DNA of 64,000 nucleotides from Chloroflexota bacterium (GTDB taxonomy: Bacteria; Chloroflexota; Anaerolineae; Anaerolineales; VGOW01): positions 46,499 through 110,498 of the forward strand of contig JACPWC010000126.1 of assembly GCA_016197225.1 (NCBI GenBank), written 5' to 3'. Under the pieces are notes generated by a model. The model was not told the origin of the DNA and searched no databases. It was given only the letters and a program-made list of their open reading frames with translations. Both the position numbers and the translations under genes were made by a program. Each line of letters starts with the position of its first letter. The first letter of the stretch is position 1. This document shows, in pieces, positions 4,151 to 57,565 of the stretch.

Positions 4151-4171
4151 TTTGGTGTCTCCTTGCGTGTT

Positions 4172-4243
4172 GGTTAGAAGTTAGAGATTAGAGATTAGAG
4201 GATTGGAGATTAACCAATCTCCAATCCTCTAATTCTCTAATAC
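4172..4243. repeat. Purine/pyrimidine hairpin repeat, family A
   Basis: A purine-rich arm built of AGAGATTAGAGGATTGGAGA-like words is followed by its pyrimidine-rich complement CCAATCTCCAATCCTCTAA. The same design occurs at 12117-12180, 15500-15560 and 43562-43606, always in gaps between genes. The left edge of this copy abuts the end of eutL. Confidence 0.75.
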
Positions 4244-4893: not shown

Positions 4894-4949
4894 AGAATCT
4901 CCAGAGAATAGAAGTCAGAGGTCAGATTGTTGGATGGTTTGGCTGGAAT

Positions 4950-5123: not shown

Positions 5124-5161
5124 AGCCGATTTACGCCCCTCTGACTTCCGGCCTCCAACCT

Positions 5162-6085
5162 CTATTTCGCCGCCAGCTTCAACTTCACCCCGCTGGCCTG
5201 ATGCTTGATCATCTTTTGCGCGATCTGGATGGTGAAGGCCGCGCCTTCGAGCGGATTGGTGCCGCCGTTGTTGAAGATGTTGCACACCACGTCGCGGTCG
5301 GCGTCGGTGTCGCCGCCTTTTGGACGATAAGCCATGTAGGCGCTCAACGACTCGGCCCGGCCCAGGCCGGGGCGCTCGCCGATGAGCAGAATGACCACAT
5401 CCGGCTTGAGCAGGTCGCCGATGTCGTTCAGCACGCCCACCCGGCAATATTTGATGAAGAACGGCGTGCCGACCGTCAGCCCGGCAGACTTCGCGCCCTG
5501 CATGATGACCGGGAACATTTCACGGGCGTTGGCTTCCACCGCCGCCGCGCTCAACCCGTCGCCGACGACGAGTTGAATGTTGGGCGACTTGGCGCACTTT
5601 TCACTGATTGCTTTTTTCGCCTCATCACTCAACTGTCGCCCTAAGTCTGGTCTCAGCAAATACTCCTGCTTGCCGCCCGTGATGTTGGTTTGCACGGTGA
5701 ACAGGCCCAGGTCGTCGAGCAGTTTCTGATCGACGTCGCGCATTAGGGCATCCTGGGTGATGGCATGGTCGCCCTGAAAGAGCAGGAGCGAGAAGGTGTT
5801 GTAGTGCGGTCCGGCGCGGCCCACGCCAATTCGAGACGTCGTCGAAGCGATGAGAGCCTTGACAGCGTCGGCGTCTTTTGGATTCTTGACTCGCGGCTTG
5901 TAGCGATGTTCGGGCAGGGTGGGATCGGGAAGATCGATGTTGAGACTTGCCGCCGAGGGCTGTCGAGAAGGGGACGCCGCCACTGGAGGGGCGGTTTCCG
6001 CTGAGGCGGGCGGCGTTGCAACTTTGGCCGCCGCCAGTTCTTTGACAACGGCTTCGATGATGGCGTTCAGTTGGGCTTCATCCAT
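5162..6085 (-). CDS. eutC: Ethanolamine ammonia-lyase small subunit EutC
   Basis: This is the light chain of the adenosylcobalamin-dependent lyase that splits ethanolamine into acetaldehyde and ammonia. Characteristic segments are RIGVGRAGPHYNT, QLVVGDGLSAAAVEAN, LLIGERPGLGRAESLSAYM and the Cys/Asn-rich CNIFNNGGTNP. I choose the ATG at 6085 (MDEAQLNAIIEAVVKEL) rather than 6121: its ATGGATGA overlaps the stop of the coiled-coil gene, implying translational coupling. The N-terminal ~18 residues form a short amphipathic helix followed by an Ala/Pro-rich linker to about residue 60, the layout of a microcompartment encapsulation peptide. The product is about 307 residues, close to the family norm. 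Confidence 0.95.
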   Translation of the reverse strand: MDEAQLNAIIEAVVKELAAAKVATPPASAETAPPVAASPSRQPSAASLNIDLPDPTLPEHRYKPRVKNPKDADAVKALIASTTSRIGVGRAGPHYNTFSLLLFQGDHAITQDALMRDVDQKLLDDLGLFTVQTNITGGKQEYLLRPDLGRQLSDEAKKAISEKCAKSPNIQLVVGDGLSAAAVEANAREMFPVIMQGAKSAGLTVGTPFFIKYCRVGVLNDIGDLLKPDVVILLIGERPGLGRAESLSAYMAYRPKGGDTDADRDVVCNIFNNGGTNPLEGAAFTIQIAQKMIKHQASGVKLKLAAK

Positions 6086-6473
6086 GGCGGGCGGCCTCCA
6101 GTTGCGCAACGCGGGCTTCAAGTTCTTCTATTCGTTCTTGCAGAGTTATTTGATCGACACGATGTCTTTTGGTGGTAACGGTCAGTTCGGCAATGTTATC
6201 GCTAGTCTTTTCCAGGCGGCTAAAAGCGTTTCCCACATCGTTTTTCAGAAGTCTCGTCGCTTCTTCCAGTTTGGCGACACGGGCTTCCAAAGCAGTGATG
6301 CGTTGGTTGATCTGGCGGAATTCTTGTTGAATGAGCGCGGCCTGATGGTCGAAAGCGGCATCAAGCTTTTCGTCAGTAACAGTCTTTGCCAGACGGGCCT
6401 CAACAGGCGCGAGCGCTTCCTGAATTACTTCGCGCACAACCTTTCTAATTTCATTCTGGTTTTGTGTTTCCAT
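6078..6473 (-). CDS. Coiled-coil protein translationally coupled between eutB and eutC
   Basis: About 131 residues, no recognised family. The ATG at 6473 shares its A with the TGA stop of eutB (TGATG), and its own TGA overlaps the start of eutC by 8 bases, so its output is tied to the lyase subunits. Residues ~5-22 (NEIRKVVREVIQEAL) form a short amphipathic helix like the encapsulation peptides that lead cargo into microcompartments. The rest is heptad-rich coiled coil (ITALEARVAKLEEATRLL; RIEELEARVAQLEAA). I infer a cargo adaptor or scaffold for the lyase. A GTG at 6476 is an alternative start. Standard eut operons do not carry such a gene between B and C. Confidence 0.75.
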   Translation of the reverse strand: METQNQNEIRKVVREVIQEALAPVEARLAKTVTDEKLDAAFDHQAALIQQEFRQINQRITALEARVAKLEEATRLLKNDVGNAFSRLEKTSDNIAELTVTTKRHRVDQITLQERIEELEARVAQLEAARHG

Positions 6474-7843
6474 CACTGCCTCTTCAAAAAGAACGTCGGG
6501 TCTCCCGCCTTCTCAGTCAGCACCCCGTTCTTCATCAGGCCGATGTCTACCATCCAGGCTTCGAACTCGGGCGCGGGGCGCAGGCCGAAGAGTTGACGCA
6601 AAGTCGGGGCGTCGTGGTAGCTAGTGCATTGGTAGGAGAGCATCGAGTCGTCGCCCATCGGCACGCCCATGAAGTAGTTGCAACCGGCGGCGGTGAGCAT
6701 CACCGCCAGGTTCTCGATGGCGTTCTGGTCGGCGCGGGCGTGGTTGGTGTAGCAGGCGTCAACGCCCATCGGGATGCCGGTCAGCTTGCCCATGAAGTGA
6801 TCTTCGAGACCGGCGCGCTGAATCTGGCGGGCGTCGTAGAGATATTCGGGGCCGATGAAGCCGACGACGGTGTTGACCTGATAAGGATGCCAACGTTTGG
6901 CGAGGCCGTAATTGCGGGCCTCGAGGGTGAGTTGATCCCAGCCGTTGTGCGCTTCAGCCGAGAGGGCCGAGCCTTGCCCGGTTTCAAAATACATGAAGTT
7001 GGGGCCGGCGGGGAAGCAATATTTTTTGGCGAGAGCGTAAGCTTCATCCAACATGCCGACGGAGATGCCGAAGGAGTCGTTGCCCTTCTGCGACCCGGCG
7101 ATGGATTGAAAGACCAGGCCGACCGGCGAGCCGGATTGCAGGCATTTCATCTGGGTGGTGACGTGAGAGAGGACACAGTTCTGGGTCGGAATGTTCCACG
7201 TCTTGATCACGTCGTAAGTCATGTCGAGCAGGCGGGCGACGGAGCCGTACGAGTCGTCCACGGGGTTGATGCCGATGACCGAGTCGCCGGAGCCGTAAGA
7301 CAGGCCCTCGTAAATTTCGGCGCGGATACCTTCGGGCGAGTCGGTGGGGTGGTTGGGCTGGTTGCGGCTGGAGAGCGTGCCGGGCGCGCCGATGGTGTTG
7401 GCGCAGTGGGCGGTGCGCGGAATCTTTTTGGCGCAATACATCAAGTCCAGGTTGGACATGAGTTTGGTGACGGCAGAGATCATTTCGGCGGTGAGGCCGG
7501 TGGAGAGGCGCTGGATCATGCCGCTGGTGGTGGTGTCGGCCAGAAGCCATTCGCGCAGTTGCCCCACCGTCCAATCCTTGATCTCGTTGTAGGATGTTTC
7601 GTTCACGGCGTCCTGAATCACCCGCGTGACTTCATCTTGATCGTAAGGGACAGCCGGGTTTTCGCGCAAGACCTGCAGTGGCACTTCGGCCAGAACGAAA
7701 CGAGCGGCCACCCGCTCGGCGGTCGTCTCGGCGGCCACCCCGGCCAGCCGGTCACCGCTCTTTTCCTCGTTGGCCTTGCCCATGAGGAGACGGATGTCGG
7801 GGAATTCGTAAGTCTTGCCGTGAAGTTTGGTGCGAAGGAGCAT
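6473..7843 (-). CDS. eutB: Ethanolamine ammonia-lyase large subunit EutB
   Basis: The 456-residue catalytic heavy chain (TIM barrel) matches the family length of about 453. It shows LMGKANEEKSGDRLAGVAA near the N-terminus, LDLMYCAKKIPRTAHCAN, SRNQPNHPTDSPEGI, the substrate-side loop YGSGDSVIGINPVDDS, and FMYFETGQGSALSAEAHN and GVDACYTNHARADQN in the C-terminal half. The lyase needs adenosylcobalamin; no cobalamin adenosyltransferase (EutT/PduO) occurs in the window, but the reactivase EutA does (14057-15496). A GAGG ribosome site precedes the ATG. It is the first gene of the tightly coupled eutB-coiled coil-eutC block. The gap upstream to 7983 holds no other gene. Confidence 0.97.
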   Translation of the reverse strand: MLLRTKLHGKTYEFPDIRLLMGKANEEKSGDRLAGVAAETTAERVAARFVLAEVPLQVLRENPAVPYDQDEVTRVIQDAVNETSYNEIKDWTVGQLREWLLADTTTSGMIQRLSTGLTAEMISAVTKLMSNLDLMYCAKKIPRTAHCANTIGAPGTLSSRNQPNHPTDSPEGIRAEIYEGLSYGSGDSVIGINPVDDSYGSVARLLDMTYDVIKTWNIPTQNCVLSHVTTQMKCLQSGSPVGLVFQSIAGSQKGNDSFGISVGMLDEAYALAKKYCFPAGPNFMYFETGQGSALSAEAHNGWDQLTLEARNYGLAKRWHPYQVNTVVGFIGPEYLYDARQIQRAGLEDHFMGKLTGIPMGVDACYTNHARADQNAIENLAVMLTAAGCNYFMGVPMGDDSMLSYQCTSYHDAPTLRQLFGLRPAPEFEAWMVDIGLMKNGVLTEKAGDPTFFLKRQ

Positions 7844-7983
7844 GAGACCTCAATTCAATAAAGGACTACTCTTCACAGTCGGCACAGTTGGGTATGCTTG
7901 CTCAAGCCGGTGGCCGGTTGGGAGGCACAAAGTATAGCCGAGAGATTGATCTCCCTCAAGCACAAATTTTGAACCATTTGCAT

Positions 7984-9237
7984 CTACAAGTTTACGCGCA
8001 AACTCAAGGCCTCGCCGCCTGGCTGGGCGTCTTTCACCCACTCGCCGGAAAAGCGCATGGACTCGTTGACGATCAGGTGGCGGAACGTTTGAGTGTGCAA
8101 GAGACGTTCGCCCTGATAGACTTGCACCTGAGCCTCACGGCGAAATTCGCGGGCGCGGAAAAGGAAACTGCTTGAAGGCGAATCGGCGGCCACGATGTTG
8201 GGGGACACCCACGCAAGAGGCGGCTCCACCTGAAGCGACAGGCCGTGTTCCGGCCACTGTCCGCCGCGCAGGAATTGGGCGATATGATGCGCGGCGCGTC
8301 TGCCCTCCAACGCGGCCCAGTCCGCTGTCTCCGCGCCGCGCAGGAGGTTGCCCGCCGCAAACACGCCGCGCTTGGACGTATGAAATGCGCCGTCAATCTG
8401 TGGCCCGCGCGTCCCCGGATCCATTTCCAGGCCGCCGAGGCGGGCGGTTTCGTGTTCCGGAATCCAGTCCCCGGTAAAAACGACGGTGTCACAGTCAATC
8501 CTTTCGATGCGGCCCGAGTCGAGATGGGTGAGTTCGATGCCCTCGACGCGCTTGTAGCCGATGATGTTGCTCACCTTCGCGCGCGGCACAACCGGCGTGC
8601 GCGTGAGCAGGTCGGCCAACAACCACTTCATGGGCCGATACGGAAAATAGAGTTGAGGCTCAGGCAGTTCCGTGACCATCATGGCAACCGGAATCTTTAT
8701 GCTCGTCAGAGTCATCAAAGCTGAAAGACTGACCAACTCCGCGCCGACGATGACCGCCCGCCGCCCGACTCCGGCGCTGCCGAGATGATGCTCGTGGGCA
8801 AAGCGCTGCAACGAGCCGGTGGTGAACACGCCCGCTGGCCGACTGCCCGGAACCAGCCGCGCCGAGCGCGGGCGCTCGCGACAGCCTGTGGCGAGCAACA
8901 CGGCGCGGGCTTCAATCTCGCCCAGGCCCTGTGGGCTGGTGAACGACAGCCTGTTTGGCCCCTGCCAGCCAGTGAGGGTAGTGTTAGTGTAAACAGGGAC
9001 GCCCGCCTCTTGCACCAGACGATGATAGCGTCTTGCATAATCGGGACCGGAGAGGAGGAGGCGCAGATCGCGCAGGCCAAAGCCGATGTGATGACACAAT
9101 CGCGGGATGCCGCCAGCTTCCGGCTCACGGTCGGCCACGACAACATCGCCCACGCCGAGTCGCTTCAACTCAATAGCCGCCGCCAGCCCGGCCGGGCCGG
9201 CGCCGACAATGAGGACTTCGGCGTGCTCAGGCAACAT
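7984..9237 (-). CDS. FAD/NAD(P)-dependent oxidoreductase (glycerol-type flavoprotein partner)
   Basis: A 417-residue pyridine nucleotide-disulfide-type flavoprotein. The N-terminal dinucleotide fold is VLIVGAGPAGLAAAIEL, followed by VVADREPEAGGIPRLCHH; a second GxGxxG-like strand is degenerate (RRAVIVGAELVSLSAL), and GVFAAGNLLRG marks the FAD-binding C-terminal motif. There is no CxxxxC redox disulfide. Its start overlaps the end of the GlpA-like gene by 11 bases. In other bacteria, glycerol kinase, a GlpA-like dehydrogenase and a flavoprotein of this type form a known cassette that often also has a small DUF1667 protein; that small gene is missing. I infer electron transfer with the upstream flavoprotein. 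Confidence 0.85.
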   Translation of the reverse strand: MLPEHAEVLIVGAGPAGLAAAIELKRLGVGDVVVADREPEAGGIPRLCHHIGFGLRDLRLLLSGPDYARRYHRLVQEAGVPVYTNTTLTGWQGPNRLSFTSPQGLGEIEARAVLLATGCRERPRSARLVPGSRPAGVFTTGSLQRFAHEHHLGSAGVGRRAVIVGAELVSLSALMTLTSIKIPVAMMVTELPEPQLYFPYRPMKWLLADLLTRTPVVPRAKVSNIIGYKRVEGIELTHLDSGRIERIDCDTVVFTGDWIPEHETARLGGLEMDPGTRGPQIDGAFHTSKRGVFAAGNLLRGAETADWAALEGRRAAHHIAQFLRGGQWPEHGLSLQVEPPLAWVSPNIVAADSPSSSFLFRAREFRREAQVQVYQGERLLHTQTFRHLIVNESMRFSGEWVKDAQPGGEALSLRVNL

Positions 9238-10639
9238 GATCCTGCTCCAGCATCATCAGTTGGCTCGGATTTTGATTCGTTTCACGCGCCAACAATGACA
9301 CGACTGCGCCGTGACAGTTGAAACCCTGACAACGCCCTTGCAGAACACGGGTGCGCCGCCTCAAGCCGTCCACCGTTCGCGCTGGAATAACCGTTCGAGT
9401 CGCGGCCAGAATTTCGCCAAGCGTCACACGCTCGCAATGGCAAACAATCTGACCATAGGTTGGGTTGGCCGCGATCATCTCGGCTGATTGATACGGGCGC
9501 GTGGCTGCTTCGCCAATGTTCGGCATGCGAATTGATTTGAATTGCAGCTTGGGCTTCAATGTAAGCCCTGCCTCTTGCAGAAGTCCGGCCACATATTCCG
9601 CGATGCCGAGTGAGGCCGACACGCCCGTGGAGCGGATGCCGCCCACGCACACGTAGCGTTGTCCGGCGTGCAACCGAATTTGATAGTCGCTATGCTCGGT
9701 GGCGGCGCGCAGTCCGGCGTAAGTAGCCGTCACTTCTTCGTTCAGCAACTCAGGTAGAATGGCCCGGCCTTTCTCCAACAACGTCTGCAAGCCGCTGGCG
9801 CTTGTGCTTGTGGCGGTCTTGTCGGGCAGGTCTTCGGCAGTAGGGCCGAGCAGAACGTTGCCGTACACGGTTGGGCTGATGAGGACGCCTTTGGTTTTGG
9901 CAGTAGGGACAGGCAACAAAATGTGATTGATCAGCGAGCGGGCGAATTTGTCGAAGACGATCAGCTCGCCCCGGCGCGGAGTGACGATGAAATCATGATG
10001 ACCCAGCAGGCGATCAATCTCATCTGAATAGAGTCCGGCGGCGTTGATGATCCAGCGGCACTCGACACTGCCGCCCGGCCCGCCGAGGACGTGGAAGCCG
10101 TCTCGTGACTGGATGGCCTTCACCGAATGATTCAGTTTGAGTGTTATGCCGTTGACAACGGCTTGGGTGGCGCAAGCCAGCGGAACGGTGTAGGTGCAAA
10201 GCACGTGCTCACCAGGGACAAGCATGCCGCCCAGCGCGCCGGGGCCGAGGCGAGGTTCAAGGCGGTAGACTTCGTCGGCGGCAATTAAATATACGTCGGC
10301 GACCCCGTTTTGTTTGGCTTTATCGAGCAGGGCGGGCAGAGTCGCAAGTTGCTCTTCGCTCCAGGCGATCAGCAATCCGCCCGTGCGCTCAATGGGAATG
10401 CCGGCCTCGGGCGCAAACTGCTCCATGAGGGCGTAACTGCGGCGCATGAGCCGCGCTTCGAGCGAGCCGGGCTTGGCGTCAAAGCCGGTGTGCCAGATGG
10501 CAGTGCTGGCTTTGGACGTGCCCATGCCCACGTCGGGCGCGGCTTCGAGGAGGGCAATGTTTAGTTCGTAACGGGAAAGTTCGCGGGCAATCGCCGAGCC
10601 AACTGCGCCCCCGCCGATGACGGCGACATCGTAGATCAT
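9227..10639 (-). CDS. GlpA-like FAD-dependent dehydrogenase with C-terminal [2Fe-2S] BFD domain
   Basis: About 470 residues from the ATG at 10639, which overlaps the stop of the FGGY kinase by ATGA. The N-terminus YDVAVIGGGAVGSAIAREL is the FAD-binding fold of the DAO/GlpA family; CVGGIRSTGVSASLGIAEY is the C-terminal FAD contact. The last ~70 residues carry a Cys pattern CHC ... RCQGFNC, the bacterioferritin-associated-ferredoxin-like [2Fe-2S] motif found in GlpA-type glycerol-3-phosphate dehydrogenases. The expected reaction is oxidation of glycerol 3-phosphate or a similar phosphorylated alcohol made by the adjacent kinase. I regard the exact substrate as open because the neighbouring kinase lacks one glycerol contact. 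Confidence 0.87.
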   Translation of the reverse strand: MIYDVAVIGGGAVGSAIARELSRYELNIALLEAAPDVGMGTSKASTAIWHTGFDAKPGSLEARLMRRSYALMEQFAPEAGIPIERTGGLLIAWSEEQLATLPALLDKAKQNGVADVYLIAADEVYRLEPRLGPGALGGMLVPGEHVLCTYTVPLACATQAVVNGITLKLNHSVKAIQSRDGFHVLGGPGGSVECRWIINAAGLYSDEIDRLLGHHDFIVTPRRGELIVFDKFARSLINHILLPVPTAKTKGVLISPTVYGNVLLGPTAEDLPDKTATSTSASGLQTLLEKGRAILPELLNEEVTATYAGLRAATEHSDYQIRLHAGQRYVCVGGIRSTGVSASLGIAEYVAGLLQEAGLTLKPKLQFKSIRMPNIGEAATRPYQSAEMIAANPTYGQIVCHCERVTLGEILAATRTVIPARTVDGLRRRTRVLQGRCQGFNCHGAVVSLLARETNQNPSQLMMLEQDHVA

Positions 10640-12108
10640 GCCCAACCGTGATAGCGCCCGAGGGCCGCCAGCGCCTTTCCCCATCGTTCCAGCCGTCGCT
10701 GACGTTCACCGTCGTCTATTTTTGGGCGATACACCGCCTCGGCCTGCCAGCGGGCGGCCAGCTCTTCGAGTGAGAGGCCGAGGGCCGAATGCCCGGCCAG
10801 GTTGGCAATGCCAATGGCCGTCGCTTCACGGGCGGCAGACACGCGGACTTCGAGGTTCAACAAGTCGGCGATGGCCTGCATGAGATACGGATTGCCCGAC
10901 GGGCCGCCATCTACTTTAAGATGTGCCGGCGACTGACCCGCGTCCTGGGCCATGGCCGTCACCACTTCGTAAACGCGGCAGGCGATGCCATCGAGGGTGG
11001 CGCGGGCGATGTCGGCGGGCGCCGTTCCACGGCTGAGACCGAAGATCGCGCCGCGAGCATCGGCCCGCCAGTGCGGGGCGGCTAAACCCTGCAAGGACGG
11101 CACAAAGACAACGTCAGAGTCTGTGGATTGAGAGGCGGCCTCGGCGCTGGCGGCTACGTTCGGCAGGAGGCGCAGGCTTTCGGCGATCCACTGCACCGCC
11201 GAGCCGGTGACAAAGATGCCGCCGTCGAAGGCGTAGGCCGTCTGGTCGCCGAAGCGCCAGGCGACGGTGGTGAGCAGGCCGTTGTTCGAGAGGCGCATCT
11301 CGCCGCCGATGTTCATGAGCAGGAAACTGCCGGTGCCAAAGGTGCATTTCATCTCGCCGGGCTTGAAGCATGCTTGGCCGAACAACGCCGCCTGCTGGTC
11401 AACAAGCAGAGCGTGCAATGGCAAAGGTTTGCCGACGCCAAAATCAAGATCGCCTGCGTGCCCCGCCGAGGGGACTACTTTGGGCAAGATGGATCGGTTA
11501 GCGCCGAAGAGCGAAAGCAGATCGTCATCCCAGTCAAAACGATTGGCGTCGAACAACAGGGTGCGTGAGGCGGTGGAGGGATCGGTGAGGTGCAATTTGC
11601 CGCCGCTGAGATTCCAAATCACCCAGGTCTCGGTGGTGCCAAAGCGGGCGCGGCCACTTTGCACAGCGTCGCGCAAGGCCGGGTCTTGTTCCAGGGCATA
11701 ACGCAATTTGGGCGCAGAAAAATAACTGTCGAGGAGCAGGCCGGTCTTGCGGCGCAGGGCGTTGTGATCAACCTGACTGGCGATGGCTTCGCATACCGAG
11801 ACGCCGCGCTTGTCCTGCCAGACGATGGCCGGGGTGAGGGGCTGGCCGGTGTCGGCGTCCCAGACGACGAATGTTTCGCCCTGGTTGTCAAAGCCGACGG
11901 CGGCAATTTCGTATTTTTCAATCAGTGGCGCGACGGCTTCGCGCACCGTCCTCACAATATCGTCCGGCTCTTGTTCCACCCAGCCCGGTTGCGGGAAGCG
12001 GGCGGGCAATTGCACCGAGTTCTTGGCGACGAGGCGGCCAGTGTCAGAAGCGACGAGGACGGCGGTGGTTTGGGTGGTGCCCTGGTCAATGCCGAGAAGG
12101 TGGGGCAT
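10636..12108 (-). CDS. FGGY-family carbohydrate kinase, closest to glycerol kinase
   Basis: About 490 residues from the ATG at 12108 (MPHLLGIDQGTTQTTAVL). GlpK-like motifs are the DQGTTQT phosphate loop, TPAIVWQDKRG, DPSTASRTLLFD, VDQQAALFGQ (the Asp-Gln pair that binds glycerol), GTGSFLLMN, LAAPHWRADARGAIFGL and KVDGGPSGNPYLMQ. The segment equivalent to NQRET of E. coli GlpK reads NQGET, so the Arg that contacts glycerol (Arg83 in E. coli numbering) is Gly; the Glu, the Tyr in DSYFSAPK and the Asp remain. The preferred substrate may therefore differ. The gene lies between the permease and the GlpA-like dehydrogenase inside the ethanolamine locus. Confidence 0.85.
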   Translation of the reverse strand: MPHLLGIDQGTTQTTAVLVASDTGRLVAKNSVQLPARFPQPGWVEQEPDDIVRTVREAVAPLIEKYEIAAVGFDNQGETFVVWDADTGQPLTPAIVWQDKRGVSVCEAIASQVDHNALRRKTGLLLDSYFSAPKLRYALEQDPALRDAVQSGRARFGTTETWVIWNLSGGKLHLTDPSTASRTLLFDANRFDWDDDLLSLFGANRSILPKVVPSAGHAGDLDFGVGKPLPLHALLVDQQAALFGQACFKPGEMKCTFGTGSFLLMNIGGEMRLSNNGLLTTVAWRFGDQTAYAFDGGIFVTGSAVQWIAESLRLLPNVAASAEAASQSTDSDVVFVPSLQGLAAPHWRADARGAIFGLSRGTAPADIARATLDGIACRVYEVVTAMAQDAGQSPAHLKVDGGPSGNPYLMQAIADLLNLEVRVSAAREATAIGIANLAGHSALGLSLEELAARWQAEAVYRPKIDDGERQRRLERWGKALAALGRYHGWA

Positions 12109-12116
12109 GGAATAAA

Positions 12117-12180
12117 AAGAGGATTGGAGAATCAGAGAATTGGTTGACGCCAATCCTCAATTCTCCAATCCTCTAATTGC
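12117..12180. repeat. Purine/pyrimidine hairpin repeat, family A
   Basis: AAGAGGATTGGAGAATCAGAG forms the left arm; CTCCAATCCTCTAATTG forms the right arm after a short spacer. It sits between the permease stop and the kinase start and would fold into an imperfect hairpin in the transcript. Confidence 0.7.
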
Positions 12181-12209
12181 TCACAAAGCGCGCGACAGAC
12201 GGAGGGCAA

Positions 12210-13784
12210 TCAGTCAGCCGCGCTATCTTTATACTTGGCTTCAATATCCGAGATCATCTTCTGGCGTTGCTCGATCTTATCGCCCATCGGCACACCCTCA
12301 AAGCGGTTGCGTTCAAGGGCATACCACAAAATGACCATGACTACGATCATGCCAACTGTGAGATAGAACACCTTCTCGTTAGGCGGGAAGAAACCGGTAA
12401 TGGCCAGCACAATGCCGCCCAACACGGCAATCACCGCATTGGGTTTAGACCATGCTCCAAGGTTGAAAGGCCCTTTCTCTTTCCAGGTTTTGCCTTCGGC
12501 AAGGAAGCCGGCCGCGATTGGCATCACGTATGATAGATAGAGGAACACGGCGCAACCTGTAGCCAATACAAAGAAGGCGTTGCCGTAGAGTGTGGAAACC
12601 CAAGCTAATACGATGCTGGTCCAAATCGCATAGGTGGGTGTGCGATATTGCGTGCTCACATGTGAGAGGACATTTGAGAAGGGCAGGCCGCCGTCGCGGG
12701 CAAAGGCAAACATCATGCGGGAGCAAGAGGTCAGGCCGGCCAAAGCACACAGGTAGTTGGAAACCGTCAAGCCAATGCTAAGGATAATCCGTAGCCAACC
12801 CGGCATTTTAGAGGCGTCATACAAGTAGAACCATGAATTGCCGCCTGTGGCCGCGCCCTCAGCTATGTTAGGCATCACCAGCACGAATGTGGAAACCATT
12901 ACAAATCCAAAGATCCATGACCACAAAACAGCTGACCACATACCCTTTGGCACGTTGACCTGCGCGTCGCGCGTCTCCTCTGAGGTATGCGCCGACGCAT
13001 CAAAGCCGGTGATGGTATATAACACAAACAGCAAGCCGAGCAGGAAGGCAAAGACACTTGCTTCTGTGCGCACCGGGAAATAAGAGCCGCCGGCTGGGCC
13101 TGTGTAGTTTGTGAATGCGAAGAGGCGTGAGAAATCCAACGACACAGGTGAGTAAATCAGCAGGGTGCCCGTCAACAGGATGGCGACCACAAAGATCAGG
13201 TAACCGCTGAAATCCGTCAATATGGTAGTGAGTTTGATGCCATAGTGATTTAACAGCGCCTGTGAAATCAGTATGCCGGCGATAAAAATCGTCTGCCACA
13301 TGTCAATGACAAAGCCGGGAGTGATAGTAAGCACCCAACTCGAAAAATCCAGGTTGGGAAACATCGGCGTCAAAATCAACGGTTTAAGGAACAGAGCATA
13401 GACGCCCCAGTCAACCGACGAAACCACAAAGATTAAGCCTAACAGGTTGAACCACGCCGTTGCCCATCCCCATGCTTTTCCGCCCAGAATGGACCCCCAA
13501 TGATATAGGCCGCCGGCGGTTGGGTAAGCGGAGGCAATTTGCCCCATCCCGAAGGCGACAATCATGGCAACGGCGCCTCCGAAGAGCCAGCCTATAGAAA
13601 CGGAAAAACCGCCGCCGGCGCTCAAGGCAGCAGGAAAGGCTGTGATGCCGCCCGCCAGAATACAGATGATCGAGAAGGAAATCGCGAAATTCGAGAACAG
13701 GCTCATCCGGCGAGCCAGTTCCTGGGCATAGCCCATCTTATGCAAATGTTTCTTATCGTCCTCAAGGTGTGTTTGACCCGACAT
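12210..13784 (-). CDS. APC-superfamily amino acid/amine permease (candidate ethanolamine importer)
   Basis: A 524-residue transporter with about 12 hydrophobic spans. It has the APC start pattern FSNFAISFSIICILAGGITAF, GAVAMIVAFGMGQIASAYPTAGGLYHW after span 2, and the loop GFDASAHTSEETRDAQVNVPKG found in amino acid/choline/GABA-type members of the family. No EutH is present, so this permease may bring in ethanolamine or a precursor; that is inference from position. An AGAGGAG ribosome site precedes the ATG, and a structured leader with an intrinsic terminator lies just upstream. Confidence 0.85.
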   Translation of the reverse strand: MSGQTHLEDDKKHLHKMGYAQELARRMSLFSNFAISFSIICILAGGITAFPAALSAGGGFSVSIGWLFGGAVAMIVAFGMGQIASAYPTAGGLYHWGSILGGKAWGWATAWFNLLGLIFVVSSVDWGVYALFLKPLILTPMFPNLDFSSWVLTITPGFVIDMWQTIFIAGILISQALLNHYGIKLTTILTDFSGYLIFVVAILLTGTLLIYSPVSLDFSRLFAFTNYTGPAGGSYFPVRTEASVFAFLLGLLFVLYTITGFDASAHTSEETRDAQVNVPKGMWSAVLWSWIFGFVMVSTFVLVMPNIAEGAATGGNSWFYLYDASKMPGWLRIILSIGLTVSNYLCALAGLTSCSRMMFAFARDGGLPFSNVLSHVSTQYRTPTYAIWTSIVLAWVSTLYGNAFFVLATGCAVFLYLSYVMPIAAGFLAEGKTWKEKGPFNLGAWSKPNAVIAVLGGIVLAITGFFPPNEKVFYLTVGMIVVMVILWYALERNRFEGVPMGDKIEQRQKMISDIEAKYKDSAAD

Positions 13785-14040
13785 GTAACAATTCTCCTCT
13801 CAAGATTAGTAATTTGGTTTACACGCAATCGCGTGAGCTACCCAGCCCCCAAAAAAACAGCGCCGTTCGGCCCGCCAAAGAGCGGGGAACAGGCGCTGTG
13901 TCAGGTGGCGGCCTTTGTCCCGGCGCAAGGCGCCGAAGAGGCCGCAAAACATACCCGGCACCAGAATGGCCGGGAACCAATAAAAGATAAATGTCCCATT
14001 ATTGCCATTAATAACCCCACGCTTGGGGAATAGTGACGGC
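13785..14040 (-). promoter_or_regulatory. Structured leader upstream of the permease gene (possible attenuator or riboswitch)
   Basis: The 270-base gap between eutA and the permease is strongly structured on the minus strand. Reading 5' to 3' it contains the stem CCCGGC/GCCGGG, then GCGGCCT ... AGGCCGC enclosing GGCGC-CTT-GCGCC, and then a terminator hairpin (separate entry) ending about 70 bases before the permease start. Such stacked stems ending in a terminator suggest transcription attenuation. I do not recognise the consensus of the cobalamin, c-di-AMP, guanidine, glycine or TPP riboswitches. It could equally be only the terminator of eutA. Confidence 0.5.
13854..13895 (-). terminator. 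Intrinsic terminator between eutA and the permease
   Basis: On the minus strand CAGCGCC pairs with GGCGCTG (7 bp) around an inner CCCGC/GCGGG stem, and seven T follow directly. This is a textbook rho-independent terminator. It lies at the end of the structured leader of the permease, so it may act conditionally. Confidence 0.88.
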
Positions 14041-14056
14041 AGAAGAAAACAAGGCC

Positions 14057-15496
14057 CTAATGATAGAAAATCAACGTCTTCACGCTCAACGGCACTACCC
14101 GCCCGTCCATCATCGGCGCACCCACGTCAATGTAGTCGCCCTCCTGCAGGCCCACCTGGTCAATCACCAGCAGGGGCCGGTCGGGGGCCATGGCCTTCAC
14201 CGTCTGGCCCAGCGCCTGGGCGTAATCGTGCTCAATAATAGCCACCAGCGGGCGGCCTTCAGGCAGAGTCCGGGCGAACTCGGCCAGGCCGGTGGCAAGC
14301 TGGAGAAGCAGGGAATAATTTAGCGATTGATCCAGTTCGAGGGCGACGGCAAAATTGTCCGTAGCCGGATTCACGTCCCAGCGGCGAACGGCGTCGGCAA
14401 TGGAGGCCGCCATTTGTAGGGGCGGCATCCCGGTGTTCATCACCGGCCTGATCACCGGCAGGTTCTTCATCGGCAAAATCTCGCGCTCGGCCCAGATCGT
14501 CGAACCGGACAGGGTGACGGTTTGCGAACTTGCGCCCAGCACGGTAGCCCTCAGCGTCTCTGCCGGTTTGACCGTCTCGTACGTTTTGATCACCGGGTGC
14601 TCGCGCAGCGACTCGGCCAACAGCGGCCCCACGTCGTCGTGGAGGGTGGCGTCGTCAACCGAGCGAATCGAAATCGGGCTGTAAAAGTAATGGCCGATGC
14701 CGCCCGACAGCATGAGCACCGTGCCTTTGCCGGAGACGGGCGCGGGCGGGGTGAGATACAGCTTTTGGGCCAGAGGCGACCCCGTTCCTTCGATCAGCTC
14801 GACAGTGAGATCGGCCATGCGGTCGGTGAAGCGTTTCAAGTCGGCCAGCGACGGCGCACTCCCCGTGACCAATCTCAAACCACAGTCTTCCAGAATGTGC
14901 TTTGCCGGTTCGGCGATGTGCCGCACCCGGCCCGTGCTGTGCTCAACTTCCAGGATGCGCCCGCCGTAGTTCATGGCCGCCGCCGCCACCAGCGCCCCGG
15001 CGTTGAACAGGGCCGAGTTGGCGCTCCCGCCGCCAATATCAATGCTGATTACTTTGCAGAAGTGTCGTTTGGAATAATCGGTTGCGCCCGCGCCGCGCCC
15101 GGCGATAAGCGACTCCAGATGCGGCCCGGCCACTGTCACCACAAACTCGCCGGCCAGCCCGCCCAGCCCGCGCAAAATTTCGTCGGCGTTCTTCTTCTTG
15201 GCCGTCTCGCCGGTGATGATGACGGCGCCGGTTTCGATCTGTTTTGGGTCAACGCCTGCCGCCGCATACTCGCGCTTCACCAGGTCGGTCAGGCGGACTA
15301 CATCAATCGTCTCGCGGTCGGCCAGTGGAGTAAAAGTAATTGGGGATTGGTAGATGACGGATTTGTCGGTGATGCCGATGCGTGGAATCTGGCCGGGGCG
15401 CGAGGTGTCGGCGAGGATGAGGCGCGAGAAGACGAGTTGCGTCGTCGTCGTGCCAACGTCAATGCCAACGCTGAGGACGGAACGGGAGTCGGGCAT
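14057..15496 (-). CDS. eutA: Ethanolamine ammonia-lyase reactivating factor EutA
   Basis: A 479-residue actin-like ATPase-fold protein that frees damaged cobalamin from EutBC in an ATP-dependent way. It shows VGIDVGTTTTQLVFS at the N-terminus (phosphate 1 loop), AVIITGETAKKKNADE, and VISIDIGGGSANSALF (phosphate 2 region), with LMLSGGIGHYF later. These are EutA family features and the length fits (E. coli EutA is 467). It is the most upstream recognisable eut gene here and is separated from the permease by a terminator-containing leader. Confidence 0.93.
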   Translation of the reverse strand: MPDSRSVLSVGIDVGTTTTQLVFSRLILADTSRPGQIPRIGITDKSVIYQSPITFTPLADRETIDVVRLTDLVKREYAAAGVDPKQIETGAVIITGETAKKKNADEILRGLGGLAGEFVVTVAGPHLESLIAGRGAGATDYSKRHFCKVISIDIGGGSANSALFNAGALVAAAAMNYGGRILEVEHSTGRVRHIAEPAKHILEDCGLRLVTGSAPSLADLKRFTDRMADLTVELIEGTGSPLAQKLYLTPPAPVSGKGTVLMLSGGIGHYFYSPISIRSVDDATLHDDVGPLLAESLREHPVIKTYETVKPAETLRATVLGASSQTVTLSGSTIWAEREILPMKNLPVIRPVMNTGMPPLQMAASIADAVRRWDVNPATDNFAVALELDQSLNYSLLLQLATGLAEFARTLPEGRPLVAIIEHDYAQALGQTVKAMAPDRPLLVIDQVGLQEGDYIDVGAPMMDGRVVPLSVKTLIFYH

Positions 15497-52788: not shown

Positions 52789-52873
52789 TTGGCAACGGAT
52801 TATGTAGCCGCTTCGCGTGTAACGGATGTTTGCGCCGCCTTGTCCGCTACATCCGTTACCACATCCGTTGCCA
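52789..52873. repeat. Nested inverted repeats built of AACGGAT words
   Basis: GTAACGGATGT (52819-52829) and ACATCCGTTAC (52849-52859) pair perfectly, and outside them TTGGCAACGGAT and ATCCGTTGCCAA pair. The rest of the divergent gap 52649-52963 contains further AACGGA words and no gene. Confidence 0.7.
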
Positions 52874-52963
52874 ATGGGAACGAGTAAAGCACAGCTTGTG
52901 CCCGCGTCCAGTATATTCAGATTGGAGTAGAATACCCATCATCTCTCGCGCGAGGCCGTGTCC

Positions 52964-55873
52964 ATGCCCAACCCAACCACCGACGTTCTGCTCGTCACTG
53001 CCACCAACGTTGAAACCCGCGCCGTCTTTCAGGCCTTTCGCGAGGCGACCGGGCGCGACCCGCAACCGCAGGCGCTGGGCGACAAGACCTATCACGACCT
53101 CGGCGTGGTGAACGACACGCGCGTGTCGCTCGTGCAATCTGAAATGGGCGCGGCGAGTTTGGGCGCGACTCTCCAGACGGTGCAAAAAGGACTCGAGGCC
53201 CTCAAGCCGGGCGCGGTGGTGATGGTGGGCATCGCCTTTGGCGTGAACGAGGCCAAACAGAAGATGGGCGACATTCTGGTGGCCAAACAATTGACGCTGT
53301 ACGAGCCGGGACGGGTGGGCGCGACCGAGACCCTGCCGCGCGGTACGCGCGCCGACTGCTCACCGCGATTGCTCGACCGTTGCCGGAGCGCCGAACTGTA
53401 TTGGGACGGCCCCGCCGTGCGCTTTGGCTTGATCCTCTCCGGCGAAAAATTGGTGGACAACCTGGAGTTCCGGCAGGCACTGTTGAAGCACGAACCCGAA
53501 GCGATTGGCGGCGAGATGGAAGGCGCGGGCCTGTACGTAGCCTGTCAGGATGCGCGCGTGGACTGGATTCTGGTGAAGGCCATTTGCGATTGGGGTGACG
53601 GCCACAAAGCCGATGACAAAGCCAAACGACAAGCAGAGGCCGCCCGCAACGCCGCCCAGTTTGTTCTGCACACCTTACAGAAGGTGGGGTTGAAGTTGGA
53701 ACGGCCCGCCGCGCCGCCGTCAGCCGACGCTGGAGAGACGACGATTCAAATGGGCGGCGTGCAACTGGAGAAAGACGCCCAGGTGACAATCGGCGCTGGC
53801 GACATGGCAGGCCGGGACAACATCAAAATCGAAACGCACTACCACGGCGCAGACCTGTCAGGTTTCCAAAACCCGACAGGTCTCAAATCCTCCTTCCCCT
53901 CCCAACCTTACTTCTTTGGCCGCGAGAAGGAACTGGCCAGCATTGCCGAAGCCATCGCGCCCGAGGCCCGCACCTGGGGCGCGCTGATTGACGGCCCGGG
54001 CGGCATTGGCAAAACCGCGCTGGCGATTCGCGCCGGGCACCTTGCCCCCGCCGCGCACTTCGCCCGCAAAATCTTCCTCTCGGCCAAGATCCGCCAGCTC
54101 ACCCCGGCTGGCGAGGAGAAGCTGGAAGACTTCATGCTCCCCAACTACCTGGACTTGCTGAAAGAACTGGCGATGGAGTTGGGCGAGGCCGACATTGCCA
54201 GGAGCGACCCCAACGAACGGGCCAACGCCGTCCGTCGCGCCCTGGCCGGGGCGCATGCCCTGATCGTGATTGACAATTTGGAGACCTTTGGCGAAGGTGA
54301 ACAGGCACGGGTCTTTCAGTTTTTGGCGCGCCTGCCGGAGGGCAACAAGGCCCTGGTCACCAGCCGCCGCCGTCGCCCCGAGGTGGACGCCCGCGCCATC
54401 CGCCTCGACCGGCTGGAGCAGGCCGACGCGCTGGCCCTGCTGGCCGAACTGGCCCAGAACAACAAGCTCCTCGCCCGCGCAAGCGAGGCCGAACGGCAAA
54501 TGCTCTACGAGCTTACCCACGGCAACCCCCTGCTGTTGCAGTGGGCGGCCGGGCAGTTGGGGCGCGGGCAGTGCCGCACCGTGGCTCAGGCCTGCGACTT
54601 CCTCAAAGCCGCGCCGCTCGCTTCTGAAAACGACCCGCTGGAATACATCTTTGGCGACCTGGTGGAGACCTTTACCGAGAGCGAGACCAAAGTGCTGGCC
54701 GCCCTGACGCACTTCACCCAGCCCGCCGAACTGACCTGGATTGCCGACATGGCCGGCCTTCCCCAACCCGCCGCCCAAACCGCCCTCGAAGACCTCACCG
54801 ACCGCTCCATCCTAATCTCCACTAATCTCCAATCCTCTAATTCTCCACGCGAAGCGTCTAATCTCCGACCCTCCAATCTCTTTTTCCTCCCTCCCCTCGC
54901 CGCCCTCTTCCTCAAACGCAAACGCCCGGAGGCCGTGCGACAGACCGGCGACCGCCTGACCGACCAGATATTTGCGCTGGCGCTGGAGAACGGCTACGAA
55001 AAATACGACCGCTTCCCGGCGCTGGAGGCCGCGTGGCCGCGCCTGAGCGCCGCCCTGCCGCTGTTTTTGCAAGGCGAGAACGACCGCCTGCAAACGCTGT
55101 GCGACGCGTTTCAGAAATTCTTACAATTTTCCGGGCTGTGGGATGAACAACTGGCGCTGAGCGAACAGGCCGAGGCCAAAGCAGAGGCCGCCAAAGACTG
55201 GCGCAAGGCGGGCTGGCGCGCCTACGACGCGGGCTGGGTGTGCAACCTGCGCGGCCAGGGGGCCGAGGTCTTGCGCTGGGCGGCGCGGGCCGAGGGCCAC
55301 TGGCAAACCGCATCTTCGACCGGAGCGCGGGAGCGGGCCCTCGCCATCCACCTGCGTGGCATCGGCCACCAGTTGAACAAAGACTATGCCGCCGCCATCG
55401 CCGCCTTCCGCGAGTCGCTGGAGTTAACGCGCACTCTGCAGGCGGAGAGCGAGGATGTGACGATTGACCTCACCGCCCTCGCTTGGGCCGAGCACGCGTT
55501 GGGCGACTACGCCGCCGCCGAGCGCGACTACACCGAGGCCCTGCGAATAGCGCGGAAAGTCAATTACCAGGAAGGTGTGGTCAGTTTCACCGGCAACCTC
55601 GCCGAACTTGCCAATGATCGCCAGCAATGGCCGGAGGCCGAACGACTGGCACGGGAGGCGTTGCCGCTGGCCGAGAAACTGGGGCAACAGGAGTTGGTTG
55701 GCGTGGATTGCCATCGCCTCGCCCTCGCCCTGCTCCGGCAGGGCAACGCCGCCGAGGCCCTGCCCCACGCCCGGCGCGCAGTGGAGATTTATACGAAGTT
55801 GCGCTACCGGGAATTGGACGAGGCTCGACAGGTGTTGGCGGAGTGCGAGGCGGCGGTGGCTGGCCCGGCGTGA
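52964..55873 (+). CDS. Nucleosidase-STAND (NB-ARC-like NTPase)-TPR protein, candidate antiphage sensor
   Basis: About 969 residues from the ATG 52964 (GAGG 8 bases before; GTG 52958 is too close to it). Residues ~1-245 are a PNP/MTAN-like nucleoside phosphorylase-nucleosidase domain: VLLVTATNVETRAV, VGIAFGVNEAKQKMGDILVA, GGEMEGAGLYVA (ribose-binding Glu) and AICDWGDGHK (catalytic Asp ~209). A short low-complexity linker (GDMAGRDNIKIE) follows, then PYFFGREKELASIAE, Walker A DGPGGIGKTALAI (~K350), Walker B HALIVIDNLE (~D437), the sensor LVTSRRR (~466-469) and GNPLLL (~521). The C-terminal ~280 residues are TPRs (e.g. ALAWAEHALGDYAAAERDYTEAL). In known defence proteins this PNP-type effector degrades ATP; here that is inference. 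Two intergenic repeat words are embedded in the frame. Confidence 0.9.
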   Translation: MPNPTTDVLLVTATNVETRAVFQAFREATGRDPQPQALGDKTYHDLGVVNDTRVSLVQSEMGAASLGATLQTVQKGLEALKPGAVVMVGIAFGVNEAKQKMGDILVAKQLTLYEPGRVGATETLPRGTRADCSPRLLDRCRSAELYWDGPAVRFGLILSGEKLVDNLEFRQALLKHEPEAIGGEMEGAGLYVACQDARVDWILVKAICDWGDGHKADDKAKRQAEAARNAAQFVLHTLQKVGLKLERPAAPPSADAGETTIQMGGVQLEKDAQVTIGAGDMAGRDNIKIETHYHGADLSGFQNPTGLKSSFPSQPYFFGREKELASIAEAIAPEARTWGALIDGPGGIGKTALAIRAGHLAPAAHFARKIFLSAKIRQLTPAGEEKLEDFMLPNYLDLLKELAMELGEADIARSDPNERANAVRRALAGAHALIVIDNLETFGEGEQARVFQFLARLPEGNKALVTSRRRRPEVDARAIRLDRLEQADALALLAELAQNNKLLARASEAERQMLYELTHGNPLLLQWAAGQLGRGQCRTVAQACDFLKAAPLASENDPLEYIFGDLVETFTESETKVLAALTHFTQPAELTWIADMAGLPQPAAQTALEDLTDRSILISTNLQSSNSPREASNLRPSNLFFLPPLAALFLKRKRPEAVRQTGDRLTDQIFALALENGYEKYDRFPALEAAWPRLSAALPLFLQGENDRLQTLCDAFQKFLQFSGLWDEQLALSEQAEAKAEAAKDWRKAGWRAYDAGWVCNLRGQGAEVLRWAARAEGHWQTASSTGARERALAIHLRGIGHQLNKDYAAAIAAFRESLELTRTLQAESEDVTIDLTALAWAEHALGDYAAAERDYTEALRIARKVNYQEGVVSFTGNLAELANDRQQWPEAERLAREALPLAEKLGQQELVGVDCHRLALALLRQGNAAEALPHARRAVEIYTKLRYRELDEARQVLAECEAAVAGPA
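53851..53883. repeat. Palindromic word inside the STAND gene (linker)
   Basis: AGACCTGTCAGGTTT and AAACCCGACAGGTCT form a 15-bp hairpin with one mismatch. The intergenic palindrome at 47715-47753 uses related words. It is read in frame as residues DLSGFQNPTGLKS just before the NTPase domain (~297-309), without breaking the protein. Confidence 0.72.
54825..54885. repeat. Pyrimidine-arm copy of family A repeat inside the STAND gene
   Basis: The run CTAATCTCCACTAATCTCCA followed by ATCCTCTAATTCTCC and GTCTAATCTCCGACCCTCC is typical of the family A pyrimidine arm. It is translated in frame as STNLQSSNSPREASNLRPSN, a low-complexity insertion between the NTPase and the TPR part. Confidence 0.7.
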
Positions 55874-56599: not shown

Positions 56600-56665
56600 A
56601 CTTTTTGTCCCTACCCGGCGTCTATCAACTGCGTGACGATAGCCAATCGCAGAGGTAGCCTCAAC

Positions 56666-57565
56666 ATGAAAATCAACCATCTCGCTACGGTCATTCTGGT
56701 TGTATTTTTTGCCGCCTGTGGCTCCGGCCCGGCCTCTGCGCCGACTCCGGCTTCGGAAGCGACCGGTGTTGTGGCGGGCGCTACCGAGTTGAAGTATCAA
56801 GTGCTGGCCCAATTCCCAAACCTGTTCTTTTGCGATCCTGACTATTACCCGATAGCCCGGGCCGATGAGGCCGACCTCGCCCGCCAGCACTTCCCCGAAC
56901 TTCAGGCCAATATCGAAGAGTTCAATGCCATCCTTGCCCATCACAACCTGAGCGGCGCGACAAATTTCACCGACGAGCAAAAGTTGCTCATTTACCGCGA
57001 ACACAAGAAACTGGGCGCCATCTTGTTCAACCTGTCAGGGGACGGTTATGAGTTTCAACTGCAAATTTCAGACAACCAGCAGGAGGGGTTTATCGTCCAG
57101 GGGTTTATTGATAGCGCCGGAGGAATCACCGTTCACCAAAAGACGGCCTCCATCGCCGCCTGCCCTATCTGCCTCGCCGCCAACACGCGCATTGACACGC
57201 CGGCCGGGCCGGTAGCCGTGAGCGAATTGCGCGCCGGGATGACGGTTTGGACGGTAGACGCGGCTGGCAGGCGAGTGGCGGCTCCCATTCTTGAAGTTGT
57301 GCGGGTCGCGGTTCCATCTACTCATCGGGTGGTTCACCTCCAATTGAGTGATGGCCGCGAATTGTGGGCCTCACCCGGCCACCCGACGGCTGACGGGCGC
57401 GAGTTAGGCGATCTTCAAGGCGGCGACCGGCTCGACGGTGGCGCCGTCACTTTTATCGAGCGTATTCCCTACGACCAGGCCGCCACCTATGACTTGTTGC
57501 CGGCAGGCGCTACCGGCGCTTACTGGGCGAACGGCATTCTGATAGGCAGTACGCTGTCCAAGTGA
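56666..57565 (+). CDS. Lipoprotein with C-terminal Hint (hedgehog/intein-type) domain
   Basis: About 299 residues from the ATG at 56666. The signal MKINHLATVILVVFFAAC ends in a lipobox (FFAAC). Residues ~25-165 are an unrecognised domain (DPDYYPIARADEADLARQHFPEL). The last ~135 residues are a Hint domain: CLAANTRIDTPAGPVAVSEL (nucleophilic Cys, block A), DGRELWASPGHPTADGRELGD (block B His) and TYDLLPAGATGAYWANGIL. The terminal His-Asn of inteins is absent (LIGSTLSK), so excision with ligation cannot occur; cleavage or ester formation at the Cys can. Function unknown. Confidence 0.83.
   Translation: MKINHLATVILVVFFAACGSGPASAPTPASEATGVVAGATELKYQVLAQFPNLFFCDPDYYPIARADEADLARQHFPELQANIEEFNAILAHHNLSGATNFTDEQKLLIYREHKKLGAILFNLSGDGYEFQLQISDNQQEGFIVQGFIDSAGGITVHQKTASIAACPICLAANTRIDTPAGPVAVSELRAGMTVWTVDAAGRRVAAPILEVVRVAVPSTHRVVHLQLSDGRELWASPGHPTADGRELGDLQGGDRLDGGAVTFIERIPYDQAATYDLLPAGATGAYWANGILIGSTLSK

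What the first reader, a model, noticed from the sequence alone, without database searches (positions are those of the whole stretch)
52964..55873. Nucleosidase-STAND-TPR protein: candidate ATP/nucleoside-degrading antiphage sensor
Seen: an N-terminal PNP/MTAN-type domain with the ribose-binding Glu motif (EMEGAG) and catalytic-type Asp in CDWGDG, an NB-ARC-like NTPase (intact Walker A and B, GNP motif) and C-terminal TPRs. Known: PNP-type domains act as effectors in Detocs, CBASS, Avs-like and NLR-like immune proteins, where they cleave ATP. Inference: TPRs sense a phage cue, the STAND part oligomerises and the nucleosidase is switched on. No helper gene is adjacent, so it would be a one-gene system.
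Basis: partly seen in the sequence, partly recalled or inferred. Interest (0 to 1): 0.82.

Follow-up and report, generated by a model that had tools for sequence, protein, structure and literature searches.

The report
Nucleotide-destroying immune receptor with swappable effectors
This bacterial gene fuses an enzyme domain with conserved active-site residues to an NLR-type sensor whose relatives in several bacterial phyla carry other enzyme-type domains in the same place, so it is likely a one-gene immune receptor predicted to destroy the cell's own nucleotides (probably ATP) when triggered, as would happen in phage infection.

Summary
In detail: window 52964-55873 (+) encodes 969 aa, an MTAN-fold PNP_UDP_1 domain, a STAND NTPase and TPRs. 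E17, E186, D209 and the Walker A/B residues are kept in all 118 PNP-bearing sequences of the best 120 (window included). The strongest evidence for an effector role is modularity: the STAND-TPR cassette (residues 305-963) carries TIR or DUF4062 domains (NADase families) in 43 of 53 scanned non-PNP relatives, and the same PNP clade meets STAND/AAA genes through matched adaptors in three of five neighbourhoods inspected. Not in the finding: the linker holds a GAGDMAGRDNI motif found at 14 places in this genome, 8 of them N-terminal to a STAND domain in 7 proteins, some effector-less: a possible shared signalling adaptor. The TPR sensor keeps about 51-59% median identity across effector classes, suggesting a conserved cue. 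Best reading: a one-gene NLR-like receptor with a nucleosidase effector. ATP as substrate, phage as trigger and amyloid behaviour are untested; seven PNP homologue loci show neither a defence island nor a shared partner. Kind: new variant of a known kind.

The parts
52964..55873 (+). whole gene: PNP - motif linker - STAND NTPase - TPR, 969 aa
52964..53683 (+). PNP/MTAN-fold nucleosidase domain, residues 1-240; catalytic-type residues E17 (53012-53014), E186 (53519-53521), D209 (53588-53590)
   Evidence: Pfam; kept in 118 of 118; MTAN folds
53741..53830 (+). linker motif, residues 260-289 (TIQMGGVQLEKDAQVTIGAGDMAGRDNIKI), shared with other STAND proteins of the genome
   Evidence: unstructured in the model
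53912..54388 (+). STAND/NB-ARC-like nucleotide-binding domain, residues 317-475; Walker A 53993-54016, Walker B 54260-54277
   Evidence: boundaries set by eye
54389..54928 (+). ARC/winged-helix-like part, residues 476-655 (GNP motif 520-522)
   Evidence: boundaries set by eye on the model
54929..55861 (+). helical TPR sensor array, residues 656-966
   Evidence: boundary set by eye
52819..52859 (.). 11-bp perfect inverted repeat (GTAACGGATGT/ACATCCGTTAC) upstream of the gene, between it and the divergent LysE gene; possible operator or dispersed repeat
   Evidence: one further place in the genome; no function shown

Best explanation
The gene encodes an NLR-like receptor in one polypeptide, a PNP-fold nucleosidase domain with conserved catalytic-type residues, a STAND NTPase with intact Walker motifs and a TPR array; it likely stays inactive until the TPRs meet a cue, then would oligomerise through the STAND domain and is predicted to strip bases from cellular nucleotides (probably ATP), stopping an infected cell and its phage. 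Shown here: the domains, their conserved residues, the recurrent exchange of this PNP for TIR or DUF4062 domains on the same cassette, and the same PNP clade beside STAND/AAA genes with matching adaptors. Inferred: sensing, oligomerisation, substrate, trigger, cell fate. The linker motif would help to nucleate or share the assembly; that step is untested.
For: Residues: E17/E186/D209 and Walker A/B in 118 of 118 PNP-bearing sequences, window included. Effector swapping: of 72 cassette loci among the 80 kept, 8 carry PNP and 64 do not; in 53 of those 64, N-termini match TIR_2 (26), DUF4062 (18) or EAD7 (2) in Pfam, TIR or DUF4062 in 43 of 53 by own HMMs; a tree of 97 cassettes needs 14 label changes (least possible 5; shuffled mean 48.1), well-supported branches alone forcing 5 for PNP. 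DUF4062 is a TIR-like NADase in the antiphage system Swarozyc (PMC13174449, abstract and passages). PNP as a separable effector: in three of five inspected PNP neighbourhoods the next STAND/AAA gene shares an adaptor, scores 97, 144, 107 against shuffle maxima 48, 55, 58 of 5000. 119 of 120 shorter PNP proteins (250-529 aa) keep E-E-D. PADLOC's 'Effector, PN-superfamily' model matches at 1.7e-16. Patchy spread: 12 of 301 genomes of the phylum match at E<=1e-60, own included, 4 with the cassette (two candidates scored per genome). Of eight PF01048 places in the genome only this one carries the motif.
Against: No substrate evidence: the nearest named enzymes are MTA/SAH nucleosidases. No defence island at the seven PNP homologue loci: neighbours are diverse and look mostly housekeeping, and the PADLOC hits among 59 of 73 neighbours trace chiefly to one kinase-like protein (30 of 33 families) and a GlgB-like one; no control set was run. 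TPR conservation is unusual for a direct phage sensor. A tryptophanase-like gene (named by eye) recurs near DUF4062- or TM-bearing cassettes in 11 loci, as for a vertically kept gene. Four cassette proteins without PNP have no PADLOC match at 1e-5, and the window's STAND part has none beyond a weak TPR model.
Confidence: 0.66

Rival explanations
1. A conserved stress or metabolic regulator: the STAND-TPR part senses a host cue and controls an MTA/SAH-type nucleosidase, with no role against phages.
For: Closest enzymes are MTANs; TPRs conserved across phyla; no defence genes clustered near the PNP homologues; cassettes with other N-termini in a shared neighbourhood.
Against: PNP replaced on the same cassette by TIR, DUF4062 and EAD7; patchy occurrence; the same PNP clade fused to TIR and, by Pfam or tail patterns, to effector-associated domains.
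Confidence: 0.2
2. The PNP domain makes a second messenger (a freed base or ribose phosphate) that activates another effector, as proposed for PNPases in conflict systems.
For: That proposal is in PMC7159879 (passages).
Against: No neighbour family is shared by two of the seven PNP loci; a PNP effector studied since then is reported to cleave ATP (PMC11249213, PMC10952713 passages).
Confidence: 0.12
3. The linker motif is only a flexible, Gly-rich spacer spread by recombination between STAND genes, with no signalling role.
For: P0002, 81% identical overall, has a plain linker, as do many of the 120 sequences printed; the region is unmodelled; resemblance to the published PUASM peptide is no better than shuffles for the window copy (613 of 3000 as good).
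Against: A GxGDxxGRD-type core at 14 places, 8 of them before STAND domains of different kinds, where the effector slot lies; in relative L082 a different Gly-rich motif matches between the PNP C-terminus and the next STAND gene's N-terminus.
Confidence: 0.4

Closest known systems
Detocs (DtcC) and Cap17 PNP effectors
   Same: PNP-fold effector in bacterial immunity; ATP cleavage reported for Detocs (PMC11249213, PMC10952713 passages); a table in the latter lists PNP also in 'NLR-like systems'
   Different: Detocs is a three-gene system; Cap17 is listed with a SLOG domain (PF18178). Here PNP is fused to STAND-TPR, with no SLOG match at E<=1 and no two-component genes among the flanking genes checked
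Fungal PNP_UDP NLRs, and PUASM amyloid pairs
   Same: PNP_UDP effector on NLRs, 145 of them NB-ARC in Sordariales (PMC12258605 passage); in PUASM pairs a motif joins a PNP effector to an NLR (PMC9815663 passages)
   Different: Bacterial; motif sequence not demonstrably PUASM; PNP, motif and STAND lie in one protein
Antiviral STAND (Avs) and bNACHT proteins
   Same: N-terminal effector, STAND NTPase, C-terminal sensor; Avs3 8dgc appears in the fold search (rank 40)
   Different: No PADLOC Avs match at E<=1; other effector; sensor conserved across phyla
Swarozyc (DUF4062)
   Same: DUF4062, a TIR-like NADase, occupies the effector slot of sister cassettes
   Different: The passages read describe a DUF4062 protein with an auxiliary domain and a phage portal as trigger; the held text has no 'TPR'
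BASS amyloid signalling sequences
   Same: Motifs at NLR N-termini and effector C-termini (PMC7889193, PMC8086366 passages); PMC8086366 notes motifs between effector and NB domain
   Different: BASS profiles were not available, so family assignment is untested; the passages name Bell, CHAT and TIR partners, here PNP

Membership tests
STAND / NLR-like receptor | P-loop NTPase of STAND type with Walker A, Walker B and GNP | tested here: met
STAND / NLR-like receptor | ligand-driven oligomerisation | not testable with these tools
   needs biochemistry
PNP/MTAN nucleosidase fold | fold and E12/E174/D197-type residues (E12 and D197 seen as mutant names, E174 recalled) | tested here: met
   E17 matched by position only
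ATP-cleaving immune PNP (Detocs/Cap17) | ATP nucleosidase activity | not testable with these tools
   no assay; no DtcC sequence was compared
Detocs system | three-gene two-component operon | tested here: not met
   flanking genes LysE, FAD oxidoreductase, B3/4, Hint, sigma factor
Cap17 | SLOG (PF18178) next to PNP | tested here: not met
   no such match at E<=1
PUASM motif | sequence match to PUASM | tested here: inconclusive
   against one published peptide: window copy 613 of 3000 shuffles as good, two other copies of the genome 273 and 76 of 3000
BASS/ASM amyloid motif | matched motif on effector and receptor of neighbouring genes | tested here: not met
   at the window PNP, motif and STAND are fused; met only in relative L082, with a different Gly-rich motif (97 against shuffle maximum 48)
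BASS/ASM amyloid motif | amyloid formation | not testable with these tools
   needs ThT/AFM
Defence island gene | homologues beside known defence genes | tested here: inconclusive
   seven loci, no control set

The most novel reading that the evidence does not exclude
The window protein is the shared executioner of a motif-wired immune network: its GAGDMAGRDNI motif lets effector-less STAND receptors of the same genome (C72 paralogue, nSTAND1-WD40, NB-ARC-TPR and NACHT-FGE proteins with the same motif before their STAND domain) recruit this single PNP nucleosidase by homotypic, amyloid-like templating: a bacterial counterpart of fungal PNP-motif-NLR signalling in which one nucleotide-destroying effector serves many sensors.
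Probability: 0.22. Interest if true: 0.87.

Novelty: new variant of a known kind. Interest (0 to 1): 0.6.

Why it matters
Sensors of immune receptors usually vary fast. Here one receptor cassette, recognisable at about 50-60% identity across phyla, carries interchangeable N-terminal domains, and the assigned enzymatic ones (PNP, TIR, DUF4062) belong to families that cleave a base from a nucleotide. That points to a conserved cue and gives a natural set of receptors for effector swapping. If the linker motif is a signalling amyloid, one nucleosidase could serve many receptors, linking bacterial STAND immunity to the PNP-amyloid-NLR signalling of fungi; a two-protein co-assembly test would settle it.

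Tried and rejected
Membership in Detocs or Cap17: rejected on gene context and the missing SLOG domain. A conserved helper gene: 841 neighbour ORFs of 80 loci fell into 61 clusters (E<=1e-15); none joins two of the seven PNP loci. Motif as PUASM: not supported for the window copy. Rows dropped: of 64 non-PNP cassette loci, 11 were not scanned for N-terminal domains (8 truncated or frame-broken: L020, L037, L045, L058, L073, L078, L079, L080; 3 effector-less: L053, L060, L061). L066's N-terminus looks out of frame by eye but stayed among the 53. The tree used 37 of 120 proteins and 60 loci, a quick search with LG+G4 and 40 of 93 inner branches open; P0007 is labelled 'motif' in it though its contig ends just upstream, so its N-terminus is unknown. 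Tail classes of the shorter PNPs come from hand-written patterns; 50 of 120 stayed 'other', and P0164, filed under STAND, really carries a GGDFVGRDK motif. PADLOC was run on 59 of 73 neighbours. Motif counts in relatives are biased: three of the five model rows come from this genome and two from close relatives of the window protein. Loci were found with two peptide patterns of a PNP-led alignment, so proportions are not population frequencies. Adaptor pairs: five of the eight PNP-only loci were inspected; L086, L089 and L090 were not.
Full report
OBSERVATION. The reading frame, domains and motifs named in the finding are present. The 969-aa product of 52964-55873 matches PNP_UDP_1, AAA_16/NB-ARC and TPR models. 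Its AlphaFold2 model (mean pLDDT 84.1) retrieves a STAND-TPR crystal structure first (6mfv_A) and then a long series of MTA/SAH nucleosidases. The homologue search scored 7995 candidates, found 1919 at E<=1e-3 and listed the best 120, the window's own protein first. All 120 were aligned: 118 have the PNP domain; P0006 (complete, effector-less) and P0007 (cut by its contig end) do not. E17, E186, D209, Walker A K350 and Walker B D437 are present in 118 of 118.

MODULARITY, SIDE ONE: THE RECEPTOR. A scan of GTDB genomes with the family alignment found 209 related loci and kept 80. Of these, 72 hold the STAND-TPR cassette, query residues about 305-963; in most intact copies it ends within about 10 residues of the stop codon, with exceptions of 29 to 434 residues. 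Eight carry PNP (one cut at its 5' end). Of the other 64, 53 had a readable N-terminal region of 60 residues or more: TIR_2 in 26, DUF4062 in 18, SEFIR in 3, TIR in 3, EAD7 in 2 (one protein can match several models). HMMs built here gave 26 TIR and 17 DUF4062, 43 of 53; four more begin with hydrophobic, transmembrane-like segments. DUF4062 was recently reported as a TIR-like NADase in an antiphage system, Swarozyc (PMC13174449, abstract and passages). A tree of 97 cassettes needs 14 changes of N-terminal type; shuffled labels need 48.1 on average (quick method, many weakly supported forks). The window protein falls in a set of four (support 100) with P0002 (PNP, plain linker), P0006 (motif, no PNP) and P0007 (N-terminus unknown), so exchange is recent here.

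MODULARITY, SIDE TWO: THE EFFECTOR. The same PNP clade occurs with other partners: fused to TIR (L130, Pfam TIR_2 plus PNP), to a NACHT-FGE-like protein (L084, by eye), to WD-like or TPR-like repeats (L137, L083, L089; by eye), and as smaller proteins with a C-terminal adaptor. Of eight loci with PNP but no cassette, five were inspected; in three of them the neighbouring gene carries a matching adaptor: L082, a Gly-rich motif at the very C-terminus of PNP and near the N-terminus of the next gene (NACHT plus FGE-sulfatase), score 97 against a maximum of 48 in 5000 shuffles; L085, a helical adaptor shared with the overlapping gene (NACHT-type ATPase with TPRs), 144 against 55; L081, an EAD-like adaptor shared with an AAA/NACHT-type ATPase, 107 against 58. 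L083 and L084 showed none. A search with the L082 PNP gave 1324 proteins at E<=1e-3, best 120 listed; 119 of 120 keep the E-E-D triad, P0136 having N for D. In PADLOC the PNP domain matches an effector model ('PN-superfamily') and one candidate model, over part of each profile.

THE LINKER MOTIF. Between PNP and STAND lies TIQMGGVQLEKDAQVTIGAGDMAGRDNIKI. Many of the 120 sequences have a plain, often proline-rich linker instead, some a different Gly-rich motif. A model of the motif from five rows finds 14 places in this genome, all at E<=9.2e-4. Eight of the 14, in seven proteins, lie N-terminal to a STAND domain: the window gene, the C72 paralogue (same cassette, no PNP), two nSTAND1-WD40 proteins on C7, a 1739-aa nSTAND1-WD40 protein on C93 (two copies; two nSTAND1 stretches), an NB-ARC-TPR protein on C31 and a NACHT-FGE protein on C71. 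The other six are two proteins without Pfam matches (helical by eye) beside nSTAND-like genes (by eye; C60, C117), a 168-aa protein with the motif at its C-terminus (C35), a zinc-ribbon protein (C93) and two short ORFs. Of 60 relatives only five genomes have one or two matches, though the model favours this genome. Of the eight PF01048 places in the genome only the window's coincides with a motif place. Effector-less motif-STAND-TPR proteins also exist elsewhere (L053, L060, L061, L126). Amyloid-type motifs at these positions are described in bacteria (BASS) and, with PNP effectors, in fungi (PUASM) (passages). The window motif is not significantly like the one published PUASM peptide available to me (613 of 3000 shuffles as good; two other copies of the genome 273 and 76 of 3000). 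I therefore hold the shared-motif network as an open, testable reading.

THE SENSOR. Median identity to the window protein in NBD / ARC-WHD / TPR: PNP-bearing 0.72 / 0.66 / 0.59 (41 rows), TIR 0.49 / 0.52 / 0.57 (25), DUF4062 0.63 / 0.63 / 0.55 (17), motif 0.69 / 0.54 / 0.51 (7), TM 0.64 / 0.63 / 0.52 (4), EAD7 0.67 / 0.62 / 0.56 (2). So the TPRs exceed the NTPase only in the TIR group; in the others they are the less conserved part, and they hold fewer columns that are at least 95% uniform (24 of 308, against 41 of 159 in the NBD). Still, unrelated TPR arrays of the same genome are only 26-31% identical to it. A sensor this recognisable across phyla probably meets a conserved cue, perhaps of the host; recombination of the TPR part between receptors is the alternative for the TIR group.

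CONTEXT. In the window the gene stands between a divergent LysE-type gene and a B3/4-domain gene on the same strand 48 bases downstream, which could be co-transcribed; a Hint-domain gene, an FAD oxidoreductase and a sigma factor are nearby. None looks like a helper or a defence gene. The seven PNP homologue loci with flanks show diverse neighbours, and none of 61 neighbour clusters joins two of them. PADLOC at 1e-10 on 59 of their 73 neighbour ORFs gave 33 families, one member each in the 25 shown; 30 families match one protein in L028, chiefly PD-T4-6 and kinase models, and one a GlgB-like model in L017. In the phylum survey 12 of 301 genomes match at E<=1e-60, own included; four have the cassette and the rest only the PNP part (two candidates scored per genome).

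MECHANISM. Shown: domains, conserved residues, modular exchange, matched adaptors. Inferred from families: TPR sensing, STAND oligomerisation, activation of the nucleosidase. Inferred from Detocs (passages; the Cell 2023 paper itself was not read): ATP as substrate. Untested: antiphage activity, amyloid behaviour.

NOVELTY. PNP effectors on NLR-like proteins are in print for fungi (passages) and listed for bacterial 'NLR-like systems'; PNPases as conflict-system domains are in PMC7159879 and PMC8195603 (passages). The listings of my searches and the passages read showed no description of this cassette with its exchange of PNP, TIR and DUF4062, nor of this motif; papers outside the held library are not covered. 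Hence: new variant of a known kind.

Noticed in passing
L130 907-2238; L131, L133, L136: TIR-like domain fused to the same PNP clade in proteins of about 440 aa from one bacterial family (f40): two nucleotide-cleaving domain types in one protein (Pfam checked for L130 only).
   Followed up: partly
L138 1468-3180 (-); L132, L140, L144: PNP with an N-terminal region of about 320 aa that has no Pfam match in L138 but looks SIR2-like by eye: a possible double nucleotide-depleting effector.
   Followed up: partly
L020, L022, L024, L026, L031, L034, L036, L041, L054, L058, L078: A tryptophanase-like gene (named by eye) recurs in 11 loci, median about 1 kb from STAND-TPR genes; five of them carry DUF4062 and three TM-like N-termini, three are unclassified. 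Looks like a vertically kept sister group.
   Followed up: partly
L113 (G000:C93) 3741-14775: Cluster of motif-bearing genes: a zinc-ribbon protein, a 1739-aa protein with two motif copies and nSTAND1-WD40, and a short motif ORF near the contig end.
   Followed up: partly
L120 2396-2902 (G000:C35): 168-aa protein ending in two kinds of Gly-rich motif, one gene away from a P-loop gene whose N-terminus has another motif: resembles an effector-plus-motif pair (by eye).
   Followed up: no
window 52789-52874: Nested inverted and direct repeats of AACGGATG/CATCCGTT upstream of the gene, overlapping the start of the divergent LysE gene; the 11-bp pair occurs at one other place in the genome (C56).
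   Followed up: partly
P0043, P0045, P0087: Three PNP-STAND-TPR relatives carry an extra 260-320 aa (PF13749, precomputed) between PNP and STAND.
   Followed up: no
window 56633-57562: Protein with a lipoprotein-like start (by eye) and a Hint_2 domain, two genes downstream of the finding.
   Followed up: no
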